Of a stretch of 42,975 nucleotides of DNA, positions 3,003 through 40,190 are shown piece after piece. The position numbers were made by a program, and so were the translations under genes. The DNA is from a virus: the IMG/VR virus record IMGVR_UViG_3300015262_000007, positions 1 to 42,975 of that record, one strand, 5' to 3'. Position 1 is the first letter of the stretch. Each line of letters opens with the position of its first letter. The notes beneath the pieces were generated by a model, which saw only the letters and a list, made by a program, of their open reading frames with translations, had not been told where the DNA came from and did no database searches.

Positions 3003-4801
3003 GCTGCTAATCCTGCCTGTTGGTTGGTGTCGGGGAATGGTAGGTCATTAATAACGTATCCCGCAAGCAGCATTTTAGCTGTGATGGATTCGCGTAATTC
3101 TTTGGCGTCTTGAGCTTTCAAACCCATAGCCGCCAGCACGTCAAGTTTGAACGTGTGATAGAAGCGCATGGTTACGCTTTCCAAGTCGTCAGCCGGGAAC
3201 ATACCTGCCCAACAGTTCATGCTGTGCCGCAGGTTGCGCTGTTCGCGTTGCAGCTCGGCCTGCATGTTGGCGATGTTGCGACCAATAGGGGTGCCTTGGT
3301 GCTGCTGCGCGATGTACTGCGGTTTGTCGATCTTGTTGGCAGCAGTGCGCAGGGCTGCCAGTTCCTCATCGCTGTACAGATAGATATCACCGTCCACCAC
3401 TTGCGGGCCACTGGCCTCAGTCGGCGGTGCAGGGTCTTGGCGCTTACCGCAATAGGGGCACGTGTGCTTGATGCGCTCAAAGTGCTTGGCGCACACCTGA
3501 CGTGTGACACCATCGTTGGCAACCTTGCGGTCACACGTGCGCAGCGGGATACCGTCGTCAGCGCCCCCACGGCTGCGGCTGGCCATGCTCCAAAGCTTGT
3601 CTTGGTCTGGTGGTCCACCGTGGCGTATCAAGTTACCCACGTGGTCATGGATCACGCCACGCGGCTTGTCAGACTGGCTGATGAGCATCAGGCGTTGCAA
3701 TGGCGTGTAGGTGTCCCAGGCTGCGGCAAGTATCGGGCTGATCATCAGACGCAGTACCCGACCCCACTGCTGTGCGTATAAAGAGAACGAAGCGGTTGCC
3801 CTGGCCATGATTACAATTTCAATGGCTGGCAGGTCAAAGCCCTCACCGAACAGGTCAACGTTCACCAACATCAACAGTTCACGGGCACGGAACCTGCGCA
3901 GGATGTTGCGGCGCTCGGCGCTCGGCGTGTCAGCGGTCACCAGGGCTGCGGGCACACCCGACCGATTAAACTGGTCAGTGAGCTTCTGCGCCTCTTCAAT
4001 GTTCTGCGCGAAGCAAACACCCAGCTTGCCCATGGCCTCGCTGACGTACGTGCCGACAACCTCACCGACAAAGTATTTGGAGCTACGCATAAGCGCGGCT
4101 GCTTCCTCTTTGCTCAGCTCACCGGTTGAGGTCGTCTTGACCTTGGCTAAGTCCAGGTCGCGAACCTTGAAGCCCCGATAGTCATAGTCGGTCAGATAAC
4201 CGTTGTCGATGCACCAGCGCATGCCGGGGCCTTCAATCATTTCGTCAACGATACCGTCAAAGTCTCGCCCGAGCCCCTTGCCATCAGCACGACAAGGCGT
4301 AGCGGTGTACAGCAGGCCGGCAACCTCGGGGCTGAAATAGTTGAAGACCTCACCCCACTTGTTCTTCTTGAGCGCGTGGTGTCCTTCGTCGATCACCCCG
4401 AGCGTTGCGCGTTTGAAGCGATCACCCCAATCAGAATTTTTGGACTTCACGGTGTCCACGCTGGCGATGGTCCAATCAGCCTTATTCTGGTTGATGTAGC
4501 TGCGGCCAAATTCCTCATAGTGCTCGGTCTGGATGTCGGCAACCGTAGCCTTGGGTGCAGCTACTGAATGCACAATCCCCTCACGCGCAAAGGCTTTTGA
4601 GATTTGACCGACCAGCTCTTTGCGGTGCGCCATCGACACGCCCCAGCCATCGTGATGACGCGCCATGTCGCCCATGCAGACGGTTTTGCCACCACCCGTG
4701 GGAATCACAACCATCACGTTGCGCTTGCCCCGTGGCAGCGTTCGGTGAGCGTGCCGGGTCTTATCGTTCGCTTCTTGTTGGAAGCCCCGTAAATTCGCCA
4801 T
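2999..4801 (-). CDS. SF2 DEAD/DEAH-type DNA helicase
   Basis: The 600-residue ATP-dependent helicase has Walker A PTGGGKT (34-40), the DEAH-like box DEGHH (138-142) and motif III-like TATPCR (166-171). A second RecA domain ends in QQWGRVLR (motif VI, arginine finger). A Cys cluster with CPYCGKR follows, probably a zinc ribbon. The overall plan is RecG/UvsW-like, as in phage helicases that unwind or remodel branched DNA. I chose ATG 4801, with GGGGA about 10 nt upstream, over the in-frame TTG at 4834. It is first in the leftward operon from the divergent promoter and overlaps the next gene by 4 bp. Confidence 0.9.
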   Translation of the reverse strand: MANLRGFQQEANDKTRHAHRTLPRGKRNVMVVIPTGGGKTVCMGDMARHHDGWGVSMAHRKELVGQISKAFAREGIVHSVAAPKATVADIQTEHYEEFGRSYINQNKADWTIASVDTVKSKNSDWGDRFKRATLGVIDEGHHALKKNKWGEVFNYFSPEVAGLLYTATPCRADGKGLGRDFDGIVDEMIEGPGMRWCIDNGYLTDYDYRGFKVRDLDLAKVKTTSTGELSKEEAAALMRSSKYFVGEVVGTYVSEAMGKLGVCFAQNIEEAQKLTDQFNRSGVPAALVTADTPSAERRNILRRFRARELLMLVNVDLFGEGFDLPAIEIVIMARATASFSLYAQQWGRVLRLMISPILAAAWDTYTPLQRLMLISQSDKPRGVIHDHVGNLIRHGGPPDQDKLWSMASRSRGGADDGIPLRTCDRKVANDGVTRQVCAKHFERIKHTCPYCGKRQDPAPPTEASGPQVVDGDIYLYSDEELAALRTAANKIDKPQYIAQQHQGTPIGRNIANMQAELQREQRNLRHSMNCWAGMFPADDLESVTMRFYHTFKLDVLAAMGLKAQDAKELRESITAKMLLAGYVINDLPFPDTNQQAGLAA

Positions 4802-34517: not shown

Positions 34518-37115
34518 TCAATTATTGACCAACGCTTGAAGGTGCTGAATTTTCGTCAGCTCCAACATGGACCGCAGAGTCTCGTTGTCATTGTTCGCCA
34601 CCGTCCCACGCTTCCACCAAACACGGTGGGGCTTGCCATCCCACTTGAGCTGACGTACCGGTGAGAAGCCCATTCTCGTGAGCACGTGGTTAACCGCAGT
34701 CGTTTTCGGAATGTCCAACCCGTCCTGCACGCAAACGGTCCTCATAGCCGCTGTTAAGCTGCTGGAGCTTAAAACGAACTGACCGACACCCACGGCCCCG
34801 GTTTCGATACATTGACGCGCCACGGCCTCATGAGCGTCTTCCCCACCCGCTTGCATTTCATGCTTCTCTTCGGTGTCCGGCGCTTTTGAGTTTGGCTTGA
34901 AATTCGCGCTAACCGTGTACTCAGTTAGGAACTTGCGCCACTCACCACGGCGGACATCGGTGAGGCTGTCAAAGATCATGTCGTAATGCGCGGTCAGCCC
35001 TTCGGTCGTCAGGCTCAACGCACCTGCCAAACCTGTCAGGCTGTTGAATGGCGAAAAGATCACCCACCACCGCCTGTCGTTGTCTTCCAGCGGCACCGCG
35101 TCAACAAAGTTGGTGAACGCAATGTAGTTGGTGACGTTGATAATCGACGCACCAGCAGGGCGACCCTTGCGGTTGATCTTGAGCGTGTTGTTGGTGATGG
35201 GCTCTTTGATCGCGTTGGCCACGGCATAACGCTTGGCCCCGGTGATCATCAGTTCTTCAAACGCCGTGACGCACGAGCCCTCTTGCCAGTCCCCGAAATC
35301 TGAGCAGACCAACTTGGCGCCAACGCTGGTGGCATTGGCAAATCCCATCACCGCCTGCATGACGTTAATGATGAGCGACTTGCCGTCACCTGGCATACCT
35401 TTAATGATTGGCGCGTACCGGCATTTCTTGCCAGGGTTCTGCGCACACCAGGCCATCCAGTCGAGTAGGTTTAGATAGACCTCATTCCGGTTACCGCACA
35501 GCGCTTGAAGGTGGCGCAAGAACGCTTGAATGGCATCAATCCCACCTTGGGTATAACCGAGGGCGATTTCAGGCACGGTGCTCGGGCTGTAGAGGTTGGC
35601 GTACCAACGACCCTCATGGTTGAAAATGCTCTCTTTGCCTGGCAGGTACATCGTGTCACCCACGGTGGCGGTGTTCCAACGCTGCAAGCACCACTTGGCT
35701 GCATCCTCACGGTCGCCGTTCGGCTTCTGCGGCATCATGCGCTCATATTGCGCATTGAACGCGGTGCGGCTCATCGTGCTGGCGGTCATCAGGTCAAAGA
35801 AGCAATCGGTGGCCATGACGTACACGTGGCGGTTTGCCCACTCAGGAATGATCCCGCCGTCTTCGTCCTCAACCACCTGCAAGCGCACCATGGCCTTGCA
35901 ATCACTGATGCTGACCGGGAACCCCCAATCACTCATGCGCTTCTTTATAGCCGCTGCCAGCCAGTCACGGTCGAGCATTGCAATTGAGCGGTCAGCAGCT
36001 ATTTGCGGCACCACGTCATTGCGCAGGTCCGCGTCATCGTTGCAGCTCATGATGAGGTCAAAGTATTCGCCACGTGTGGTGCCGGCCTCAACGGTCACAG
36101 CGCTCTCAAGGCGCTGCACAGTCTCCTTGTCCTGGCACACGTTGCGGGTCTGCTCACAAGCCTTGCGCACCGTCAGCTCAGCCAGGTACGTGCGGTGGTC
36201 GGTCCACTTAGGGCGCACCAACTTTGACTGCCACATAAGCCGCACCATGCGCTCAGCATCGCAACCGGTCCAAAAGGCCAGGTGGGAAGCAAGCGCAAAG
36301 TCAGCCCCGGTGCCGTCGTACGGCAGATCATCAAGGCGCTCATCAGGATAATGCTCGGCCAGCACCTGCACGTTGCCGGTCCAAAGGTCCGCAAAGGTCG
36401 CCTTACCACCAAACATGGCTGCACCTGAGCGCGACTGCATCGCCCGCCTGATCAGCTCATTGTCATCGGTGGGACCGTTCCAGTCACTGCGCGGGCCATC
36501 ACCCTGCAAGACCGCCACGGCAGTGTCAGGGGTAAAGATGTTGGCTGCGATGTACTCGGCCTGATGCTGTAGGTGGGTGTCGGCTGATCCCCACGCTTGG
36601 CCGCTGGTGCCAAACGCAATACCGCGACCGCTGGTGTAGAGCTCAAGACCAACGCCAGGGTTCGCAACAGTCCAAGCTTTGGTTGGTCGGGTACGGTGAC
36701 CGGGTGGCGGGCAACCTCGCCCTATGAAGTGAATGCCCTTGCCTGATGAGCTGTACTCAAAAAAGGCGCCTGGCAGGTTTTGGTAGAACCAGGCTCCCCA
36801 TGGTGAAAGGCTACCATCAGGGTTAACGCAATTGTCGACATCAAGGAACCAGTAACCACAGCCACCAGTAACCATAAAACCGAGCGAGTAGGCATAGCCG
36901 TCAAGTCTCCCCAGGTGAGCATTAAGCTGAGCCGTGGCTATCTCGTGCGACGTCCAGTTCTCGGCAAGTTGTGCATCCATCGGTGCAACGCGACCGTCAG
37001 GGTAAACAGGTCGCTTTATGAATTTCCCCGGTTTCGCAGGGTCGGGGGTTAGCCGCCACACGAACCATTGATTGATGGCGGTCATTCCCGCCAAAGCTGT
37101 TGCGAGCATTGTCAT
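34518..37115 (-). CDS. Primase-polymerase / SF3 helicase
   Basis: The 865-residue replication protein has an N-terminal Prim-Pol domain (about 1-200) with the metal site FLDVDNC and GKGIHFIGRG. A linker and PriCT-like helical region follow. The C-terminal SF3/D5-type helicase (about 530-720) has Walker A GMPGDGKS, Walker B-like VTAFEEL and arginine-bearing LEDNDRRWW. It would prime and unwind at the origin for the family B polymerase. It starts with ATGACAATG, with AAGG upstream, and is preceded by a perfect 18-bp inverted repeat. Confidence 0.9.
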   Translation of the reverse strand: MTMLATALAGMTAINQWFVWRLTPDPAKPGKFIKRPVYPDGRVAPMDAQLAENWTSHEIATAQLNAHLGRLDGYAYSLGFMVTGGCGYWFLDVDNCVNPDGSLSPWGAWFYQNLPGAFFEYSSSGKGIHFIGRGCPPPGHRTRPTKAWTVANPGVGLELYTSGRGIAFGTSGQAWGSADTHLQHQAEYIAANIFTPDTAVAVLQGDGPRSDWNGPTDDNELIRRAMQSRSGAAMFGGKATFADLWTGNVQVLAEHYPDERLDDLPYDGTGADFALASHLAFWTGCDAERMVRLMWQSKLVRPKWTDHRTYLAELTVRKACEQTRNVCQDKETVQRLESAVTVEAGTTRGEYFDLIMSCNDDADLRNDVVPQIAADRSIAMLDRDWLAAAIKKRMSDWGFPVSISDCKAMVRLQVVEDEDGGIIPEWANRHVYVMATDCFFDLMTASTMSRTAFNAQYERMMPQKPNGDREDAAKWCLQRWNTATVGDTMYLPGKESIFNHEGRWYANLYSPSTVPEIALGYTQGGIDAIQAFLRHLQALCGNRNEVYLNLLDWMAWCAQNPGKKCRYAPIIKGMPGDGKSLIINVMQAVMGFANATSVGAKLVCSDFGDWQEGSCVTAFEELMITGAKRYAVANAIKEPITNNTLKINRKGRPAGASIINVTNYIAFTNFVDAVPLEDNDRRWWVIFSPFNSLTGLAGALSLTTEGLTAHYDMIFDSLTDVRRGEWRKFLTEYTVSANFKPNSKAPDTEEKHEMQAGGEDAHEAVARQCIETGAVGVGQFVLSSSSLTAAMRTVCVQDGLDIPKTTAVNHVLTRMGFSPVRQLKWDGKPHRVWWKRGTVANNDNETLRSMLELTKIQHLQALVNN

Positions 37116-37134
37116 TGCCTTATTTTAACGAAAA

Positions 37135-37203
37135 CGCCCGATGCACTCTAGAATGGCTGCCAAGCTCCAAGGGTCAGTACCCCTGTCTAGAGTGCATCGG
37201 GCG
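37135..37203. repeat. Perfect 18-bp inverted repeat upstream of primase
   Basis: CGCCCGATGCACTCTAGA (37135-37152) is repeated inverted at 37186-37203 around a 33-nt spacer. Leftward, the stem is followed by TTTT and then the primase ribosome site 20-25 nt on. It could act as attenuator, operator or part of an origin. Confidence 0.92.
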
Positions 37204-37282
37204 TCTTACTGATTGGGTGAACTTGGCGGGGTGAGTAGACCACAAATTACAGCAGGGGTGCCAGCATCAAATCGCAGGCAAA

Positions 37283-37420: not shown

Positions 37421-37449
37421 ACAATAGACCACAAATAACAGACAAAGAA
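37421..37449 (-). promoter_or_regulatory. Promoter-like element P6 with weak -35
   Basis: Leftward, TATTGT (37426-37421) and spacer GTCTGTTATTTGTGGTC closely match P1, but the -35 position reads TTCTTT. A weaker relative (CTGTAATTTGTGGTCTA) lies at 37235-37252. Either could feed the primase gene. Confidence 0.5.
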
Positions 37450-37481
37450 AAGCCCCGGCGCTGGGGAAAGCAACCGGGGCT
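37445..37481 (-). terminator. Intrinsic terminator, copy B of twin cassette
   Basis: AGCCCCGG and CCGGGGCT form an 8-bp stem with a 15-nt loop, followed leftward by TTTTCTTTG. It ends the small-gene operon about 37 bp after the last stop at 37518. Confidence 0.88.
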
Positions 37482-37517
37482 CAGGTGTAGCCAAGCAATG
37501 ACAATGCACGGGCGACT

Positions 37518-37700
37518 TTACGCACTCACCGGAACACTGTCAAGCAGCTCTTTGGCCCGCAGCTCAATAGCACTGCTCGCGTCCTTGTAGCCTTCCAACC
37601 AGTGACGGCGCTCCCAATCCTTGCAGGCTGGTGGCGGTGTGCATGGCTTGCCGCTGCGGCGCTGACTGGCCCCGCCGTGATACCAACGTGTCTGAGTCAT
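37518..37700 (-). CDS. Rmf/CrpP-like miniprotein D
   Basis: The 60-residue protein has an aromatic-Gly start WYHGGASQRRSGKP, a central Pro/Cys segment TPPPAC and the C-terminal signature HWLEGYKDA. This is the W-x2-G-aromatic pattern of the Rmf/CrpP fold, whose founder RMF binds and dimerises ribosomes in stationary phase. The CPY/NPY motif is degenerate here. It is last of four consecutive similar genes and overlaps the previous one by 4 bp. Confidence 0.65.
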   Translation of the reverse strand: MTQTRWYHGGASQRRSGKPCTPPPACKDWERRHWLEGYKDASSAIELRAKELLDSVPVSA

Positions 37701-37873
37701 TGCGGCTGCTCCGCTGTTGGTAGTTTCATGTCGTCGCGCTGCTTCTGGTTAAACCCCTCATGCCAGATATAGAACTTTGGGGTGCGGTCAAGATACGGGC
37801 ACGGGACCGCACCGCTCGCGTCATCGGTCTTGGCGGCTTCATAGCCCTCTTTAAACCATTTGCTATTGCGCAC
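37697..37873 (-). CDS. Rmf/CrpP-like miniprotein C
   Basis: The 58-residue protein has WFKEGYEAAK (about 6-15), the canonical CPY motif in VPCPYLD and YIWHEGF. It is the closest of the four to RMF: G-Y-x-A, CPY, then W-x2-G. I chose GTG 37873, with AAGGGG 7 nt upstream; a TTG at 37879 is an alternative. It overlaps miniprotein B by 11 bp. Confidence 0.72.
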   Translation of the reverse strand: MRNSKWFKEGYEAAKTDDASGAVPCPYLDRTPKFYIWHEGFNQKQRDDMKLPTAEQPQ

Positions 37874-38030
37874 TATCAAACCCCTTATTCCAAAATTGAT
37901 GTTCCGGCGAACCCTTCTTGTGTGGGTTCATTCCCCGACCGCCACCGCCAGTGCGCAAGCACGCTCTTGCATATTGCGCACCCCGGTCAAAAGCGCACTG
38001 CTCACGTGTATTGCTGGGTTTCTTCTGCAT
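37863..38030 (-). CDS. Rmf/CrpP-like miniprotein B (easily missed, 55 aa)
   Basis: This 55-residue ORF fills what would otherwise be a gap between two annotatable genes. It reads AFDRGAQYARACLRTGG, then GMNPHKKGSPEHQFWNKGF. This matches the Rmf/CrpP plan: R-G-x-x-Y-A, NP(H), W-x2-G-aromatic. ATG 38030 has AAGGA 8-9 nt upstream. It overlaps miniprotein A by 29 bp and C by 11 bp. Its length equals that of E. coli RMF. I checked every codon on the reverse strand. Confidence 0.72.
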   Translation of the reverse strand: MQKKPSNTREQCAFDRGAQYARACLRTGGGGRGMNPHKKGSPEHQFWNKGFDSAQ

Positions 38031-38172
38031 CAATCAGTTCCTTGTCTTTATCGTTCCAGCCGGCCAACCACCACGACCAGGCCCATTGCATATAAGCGTT
38101 CGGGTTCGTCAACTTCCCAACACCATCAAGTCTTGCTTTCTCACCTTGGTAATAGGGTCGCGGATACTTCAA
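38002..38172 (-). CDS. Rmf/CrpP-like miniprotein A
   Basis: The 56-residue protein has YYQGEKARLDGVGKLTNPN followed by WWLAGWNDKD, again the G-x3-A, NP and W-x2-G-W layout. The most likely start is TTG 38172. It overlaps the previous TGA (TTGA) and has AAAGGGG 8 nt upstream; a GTG at 38214 would give 70 residues. First of four tandem relatives. Confidence 0.68.
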   Translation of the reverse strand: MKYPRPYYQGEKARLDGVGKLTNPNAYMQWAWSWWLAGWNDKDKELIDAEETQQYT

Positions 38173-40161: not shown

Positions 40162-40190
40162 ACGATAGAACTCTATTAACGGTCTGTCAA
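40162..40190 (-). promoter_or_regulatory. Sigma70-like early promoter P2
   Basis: Leftward TTGACA (40190-40185) and TATCGT (40167-40162) are 17 bp apart, with spacer GACCGTTAATAGAGTTC. It drives the small-gene operon ending at 37518 and lies directly after the terminator at 40195-40221. Confidence 0.87.

What the first reader, a model, noticed from the sequence alone, without database searches (positions are those of the whole stretch)
37518..38172. Four consecutive Rmf/CrpP-like miniproteins, one hidden below usual ORF cutoffs
Four overlapping genes (56, 55, 58 and 60 aa) share a layout: aromatic/Gly-x3-Ala helix, central NP or CPY, then W-x2-G-(W/F/Y). This is the pattern of ribosome modulation factor and the related CrpP fold. 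The sequences are divergent, so this looks like an old paralogous array, possibly giving different partners such as ribosome states, host factors or nucleotides. A single Rmf/CrpP-like gene in a phage would be ordinary; a tandem set of four is, to my knowledge, not a described system. The 55-aa member (37863..38030) would be skipped by most gene callers.
Basis: partly seen in the sequence, partly recalled or inferred. Interest (0 to 1): 0.85.

Follow-up and report, generated by a model that had tools for sequence, protein, structure and literature searches.

The report
Phage cluster of four RMF-like miniproteins
A bacterial virus carries four tiny, overlapping, distantly related genes whose proteins resemble the bacterial protein that puts ribosomes to sleep; the cluster is real, conserved and reshuffled among related viruses, but what each protein does is still untested.

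Summary
Four short ORFs of 56, 55, 58 and 60 aa (A-B-C-D) lie head to tail on the minus strand at 37518-38172 with overlapping stops and starts. None of 40 shuffles of the window gives the layout. Counting the window, nine closely related genomes cover the site: A, B and D are intact in all nine, C in four. All evolve under purifying selection, and junctions stay overlapped even where C is missing or the order is A-B-D-C. A divergent phage (57% primase identity) also carries A, B and C. Profile comparisons link A to B, D and RMF (E about 1e-6). The divergent phage's A and B reach Pfam's RMF cut-off, although the window's own proteins do not. A template-free model of D finds RMF as its two best PDB matches.

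So this is an old paralogous array of RMF-superfamily miniproteins. Single and paired phage RMF-like genes were known, and I found an overlapping pair in Agrobacterium phages. Three to four in a row, with modular turnover, is a new variant. Only B and D are basic like RMF; A and C are not, so ribosome binding by all four is unlikely. The 55-aa gene is not especially hidden.

The parts
38002..38172 (-). Gene A, 56 aa, TTG start overlapping the stop of the upstream 120-aa gene; the hub of the array by profile comparison; single A-like genes also occur in Pseudomonas phages and prophage regions
   Evidence: phrog_10492 E=4.5e-9; relatives; profile links
37863..38030 (-).
   Evidence: intact in 9/9 genomes, pooled pN/pS 0.45; L011 orthologue passes Pfam RMF cut-off; two-helix model, pLDDT 68
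37697..37873 (-). Gene C, 58 aa, GTG start; present in 4 of 9 close genomes and in L011; after D in L004
   Evidence: pooled pN/pS 0.52; C-RMF profile E=6e-4
37518..37700 (-). Gene D, 60 aa, ATG start; last gene of the array in the window
   Evidence: NCBIfam PRK14563 (RMF) E=0.022; model pLDDT 85.9 with RMF as the two best PDB matches
37515..37543 (-). Promoter-like TTGACA-N17-TAAAGT inside the 3' end of the last array gene; the stop codon TAA is the first half of the -10
   Evidence: TTGACA identical in 10/10 and TAAAGT in 9/9 genomes although the last gene differs
37444..37481 (-). Conserved intrinsic terminator after the array (stem 37452-37481, then a T-rich run)
   Evidence: alignment and consensus fold, 2 pairs with changes on both sides; not listed by the simple scan

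Best explanation
The locus is the 3' end of a run of small phage genes that ends in an old paralogous array of four RMF-superfamily miniproteins, probably made as a block through overlapping stop and start codons. SHOWN by sequence: the genes are real and under purifying selection; they are related to one another and to RMF, chiefly through A; order and content change between relatives while the overlaps are kept. INFERRED: the products are accessory factors acting on the host during infection. Each would be a two-helix adaptor whose Gly/Pro/Trp-Gly core is kept while surfaces diverge, so that each binds a different partner. The likeliest partner for the basic members (B, D) is the small ribosomal subunit near the 16S 3' end, as for host RMF, giving the phage a handle on host translation. 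The neutral or acidic members (A, C) more likely bind other host or phage proteins. I give about 0.93 to the array and superfamily assignment and about 0.3 to ribosome binding by at least one member.
For: Open and selected in nine genomes. Array also in L011. L011 B and A reach the Pfam RMF cut-off. Array profile retrieves RMF as top three in the PDB, E 7.6e-4. Profile links A-B, A-D and A-RMF near 1e-6, above shuffled controls. D model: RMF as the two best PDB matches, a phage 'ribosome modulation factor' as best viral match. B and D basic. RMF's site on the 30S: PMC6746590.
Against: The window proteins miss the Pfam cut-off. B-RMF and D-RMF profiles are not significant on their own. A and C are not basic and none of the four has RMF's N-terminal arm. 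B's model is weak and finds no RMF. Foldseek E-values are poor. No experiment, expression data or known host; early expression is assumed from position only.
Confidence: 0.5

Rival explanations
1. Counter-defence or nucleotide-signal module: RMF-fold miniproteins bind host defence proteins or NAD/ADP-ribose-type ligands, and several diverged copies cover several targets.
For: Presence/absence and reordering of C, a variable middle in B. An ORF of the SLOG family beside the array in L004, with a homologous ORF in L008. In Agrobacterium phages an RMF-like domain is fused to what the Milano depositors call a macro domain, near DprA-like or DUF2493 genes.
Against: Association not tested against background; Pfam did not confirm the macro domain at E<=0.01; no PADLOC match for the array proteins.
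Confidence: 0.25
2. The four proteins work together as one complex (hetero-oligomer) rather than on separate partners, which would explain the coupling.
For: Overlapping genes kept in every arrangement.
Against: C is absent from five of nine genomes and D was not found in L011, so a fixed four-part complex is not required; A occurs alone elsewhere.
Confidence: 0.1
3. Chance or non-coding ORFs that only look alike.
For: Each is short, two start with TTG or GTG, and each misses Pfam's RMF cut-off.
Against: A, B and D unbroken in nine of nine genomes, indels keep frame, pN/pS well below 1 for all four; 0 of 40 shuffles show the layout; significant profile homology.
Confidence: 0.02

Closest known systems
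Ribosome modulation factor, RMF (Pfam PF04957; E. coli 55 aa, Pseudomonas 71 aa)
   Same: Size, two-helix fold (D model), Gly core, [NC]P before W-x2-G-[WFY] in A, B and C; profile homology through A
   Different: Sub-threshold sequence scores in the window; no KRxKRD arm; A and C not basic; RMF is a single host gene, here four in a row
Phage RMF-like proteins (NCBIfam NF041887 Rmf_like_phage; Milano QBQ72082 and QBQ72098; OLIVR4 gp45; RHph_I4 EVC24_167)
   Same: Short phage proteins or domains of the same layout among small early-type genes
   Different: Mostly one or two scattered copies; no run of three or four described in the papers I could search
RMF-like pair in Agrobacterium phages 7-7-1 and Milano (7-7-1 gp079-gp078)
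   Same: Two RMF-like coding units that overlap by a few bases
   Different: Only two, and the second is the N-terminus of a longer protein annotated in Milano as macro-domain-containing; in OLIVR4 one gene lies between
CrpP / Rmf-CrpP family (NCBIfam NF041886)
   Same: Same nominal fold family; one of 17 array proteins matches at E=3.5e-4
   Different: Gly7, reported as essential in CrpP (PMC7918633), is not Gly by residue number in any of the four; no evidence of enzyme activity

Membership tests
RMF (Pfam PF04957) | Score over the curated Pfam cut-off (27.9 bits) | tested here: not met
   Window proteins: at most 14.6 bits. Met only by L011 orthologues of B (29.2) and A (28.5). So the window proteins are filed as RMF superfamily, not as RMF.
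RMF superfamily (remote homology) | Significant profile similarity to RMF | tested here: met
   Array profile vs PDB: RMF top three, E 7.6e-4; A-RMF 1.4e-6, C-RMF 6e-4; B and D linked through A
RMF superfamily (remote homology) | Two-helix RMF fold | tested here: inconclusive
   D: RMF as two best PDB matches, TM 0.59/0.65, but E about 3. B: two helices, pLDDT 68, no match. A and C not modelled.
RMF | Strongly basic protein with a basic N-terminal arm | tested here: not met
   Net charge A -1, B +6, C 0, D +3 against +5 to +7 for RMF; arm absent in all four
RMF | Binds 30S/70S and promotes 100S dimers | not testable with these tools
   Needs a ribosome gradient
Phage RMF-like (NCBIfam NF041887) | Match to the NCBIfam model | tested here: inconclusive
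   2 of 17 array proteins match, best E 0.037
CrpP | Essential residue Gly7 (PMC7918633) | tested here: inconclusive
   By residue number none of the four has Gly7 (sequences); no alignment to a CrpP sequence was made
CrpP | ATP-dependent modification of ciprofloxacin | not testable with these tools
   Needs an enzyme assay

The most novel reading that the evidence does not exclude
A phage-made, modular set of RMF-fold adaptors in which each paralogue has been re-targeted to a different host component (a ribosome state, a defence protein, a nucleotide signal), with gene gain, loss and reordering acting as a swappable counter-host repertoire, as at anti-CRISPR loci.
Probability: 0.15. Interest if true: 0.75.

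Novelty: new variant of a known kind. Interest (0 to 1): 0.43.

Why it matters
RMF-fold miniproteins are widespread in phages, but I found no paper that tests what any of them does. An array with several diverged copies, kept by selection and present or absent among close relatives, offers natural variants for comparing partners. It could show whether phages manipulate ribosome hibernation or have re-used the RMF fold for something else.

Tried and rejected
Chance ORFs: rejected on selection, conservation and shuffles. Close relatives in named phages: a DNA search found none. tblastn with C hit F116-group phages and with D hit Xanthomonas phages, weakly; in the records inspected (F116; Xanthomonas BsXeu269p/3) the matches run opposite to the annotated gene there, so I treated them as chance. 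Host RMF found only a Rhizobium phage. A profile search of 200 Pseudomonas genomes gave 12 genomes with one match each and no adjacent pair, though at most 33 candidates per genome were scored. Gene conversion between A and D for the shared GWNDKD stretch: looked at by codon, not decided. PADLOC: nothing. Rfam on the region after D: nothing. Papers on phage RMF arrays: none found; one genome announcement mentions two phage RMF proteins.

Full report
OBSERVATION. The window is a whole IMG/VR virus record of 42,975 bases. On the minus strand four ORFs follow each other: A 38002-38172 (TTG, 56 aa), B 37863-38030 (ATG, 55 aa), C 37697-37873 (GTG, 58 aa), D 37518-37700 (ATG, 60 aa). Every stop overlaps the next start (29, 11 and 4 nt), and A's TTG overlaps the stop of the 120-aa gene upstream. 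A pattern of the described layout hits exactly these four ORFs and none in 40 dinucleotide shuffles. The pattern was written after seeing them, so the homology below is the real test.

ARE THEY GENES? One search found nine viral contigs with 80-94% identical primase; eight of them cover the site, so with the window there are nine genomes. A, B and D are intact in all nine, and indels between them keep frame. C is present in four (window, L004, L005, L008). Pooled pN/pS is 0.28 (A), 0.45 (B), 0.52 (C) and 0.39 (D). Gene order is A-B-C-D (window, L005, L008), A-B-D (L002, L003, L007, L009, L010) and A-B-D-C (L004). In every arrangement the junctions keep their stop/start overlaps, so whole genes are gained, lost or moved without breaking the coupling. 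A divergent phage, L011 (primase 57%), has A, an unrelated 63-aa gene, B and C in the same place.

ARE THEY RMF-LIKE, AND RELATED TO EACH OTHER? Singly they are weak: Pfam RMF is the only Pfam hit for B (E=0.077) and D (E=0.036), below the cut-off, and A matches phrog_10492 at 4.5e-9. The L011 B protein passes the Pfam cut-off (29.2 against 27.9 bits) and its A scores 28.5. A profile of 17 array proteins, with no RMF in it, retrieves RMF as its top three hits in the PDB, best E 7.6e-4. Profile-profile comparisons give A-B 8e-7, A-RMF 1.4e-6, A-D 2.7e-6, B-C 1e-4, A-C 3e-4 and C-RMF 6e-4, each above the best of 30 shuffled-column controls. Direct B-RMF and D-RMF are not significant. So A is the hub, and the placing of B and D rests on the chain through A and on L011.

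STRUCTURE. AlphaFold2 without templates gives D as two helices (5-15, 28-55; pLDDT 85.9). Its two best Foldseek matches among 350,542 PDB chains are RMF from Vibrio (2jrm) and RMF from an E. coli hibernating ribosome (9iot, TM 0.59/0.65, rmsd 1.5 A over 40 columns). The E-values (2.7, 3.1) are weak for so small a protein, and Foldseek also uses residue identity, so this is not fully independent of sequence. In BFVD the best match is a phage protein named ribosome modulation factor (prob 1.00). B is predicted as two helices but with pLDDT 68 and no RMF match. A and C were not modelled.

WHAT DO THEY DO? RMF sits on the back of the 30S and stabilises the 16S 3' end, including part of the anti-SD (PMC6746590). 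RMF is basic (+5 to +7) with a KRxKRD arm. B (+6) and D (+3) are basic, A (-1) and C (0) are not, and none has the arm. I therefore favour re-targeted RMF-fold adaptors, with B and D the best candidates for ribosome binding. This is inference. A rival is nucleotide-signal or counter-defence work. L004 and L008 carry homologous ORFs beside the array, and the L004 one matches the SLOG family. In the unrelated Agrobacterium phages 7-7-1 and Milano an RMF-like gene overlaps a second RMF-like domain, which is fused to what the Milano depositors call a macro domain; in OLIVR4 one gene lies between the two. The association was not tested against background.

NOVELTY. Phage RMF-like proteins are known: NCBIfam has a model, Milano has two reported (PMC6588377), and BFVD holds many similar models. 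Tandem occurrence is not unique either: besides the overlapping pair just described, BcepSaruman has two copies about 1.1 kb apart. I found no description of three or four in a row with modular turnover, but the paper library holds only openly licensed papers. Verdict: a new variant of a known kind.

REGULATION (side observation). The 3' end of whichever gene is last carries TTGACA-N17-TAAAGT, with the stop codon inside the -10. TTGACA is kept in 10/10 and TAAAGT in 9/9 genomes, and a conserved terminator follows. The 5' part of the RNA this would make is complementary over 9-13 nt to the primase start region in nine genomes but not in L011. The match was found after the fact, 3 of 2000 random segments reach 13, and no compensatory change is seen. 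It is a lead only.

Noticed in passing
37444-37543 (minus strand): Conserved promoter-like TTGACA-N17-TAAAGT in the 3' end of the last array gene, its stop codon inside the -10, followed by a conserved terminator: possibly a promoter for an RNA of about 65 nt. The tail belongs to the position, not the gene: in L004, where C is last, C carries it.
   Followed up: partly
37103-37118 and 37495-37510: The first bases of that putative RNA (GCATTGTCATTGC) are complementary to the primase start region; 13 nt in four genomes, 9-11 in five, absent in L011. Could be start-codon pairing or chance.
   Followed up: partly
37131-37152 and 37186-37207: A 22-nt, 95% complementary inverted repeat just upstream of the primase gene, with T-rich sequence after it on the minus strand.
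   Followed up: no
40162-40190 (minus strand); L011:2619-2635: TTGACAGACCGTNAATA recurs after a terminator in the window and in several relatives, including L011; looks like a phage-specific promoter.
   Followed up: no
L117:23451-24066, L128:1501-2116, L127:1501-2877: Agrobacterium phages: an RMF-like gene followed by an RMF-like domain fused to an apparent macro domain; in the Milano record the second one's RMF-like N-terminus is left out of the annotated gene.
   Followed up: partly
L004:2043-2642, L008:5501-6004: Homologous ORFs between the array and the primase, the L004 one matching Pfam YpsA/SLOG; absent from the same place in the window.
   Followed up: partly
L011:8373-8657: A further RMF-like ORF after the primase of L011, apart from its array.
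   Followed up: no
L125:2483-2662 and 3765-3908: Burkholderia phage BcepSaruman has two RMF-like genes about 1.1 kb apart, either side of a tRNA-His guanylyltransferase gene and two small genes.
   Followed up: no
37863-38030 (gene B) and its orthologues: B's central stretch varies in length (55-66 aa overall) and falls into a few types (for example L003/L009 and L008/L010) while both ends stay fixed, which hints at allele exchange or diversifying pressure.
   Followed up: no
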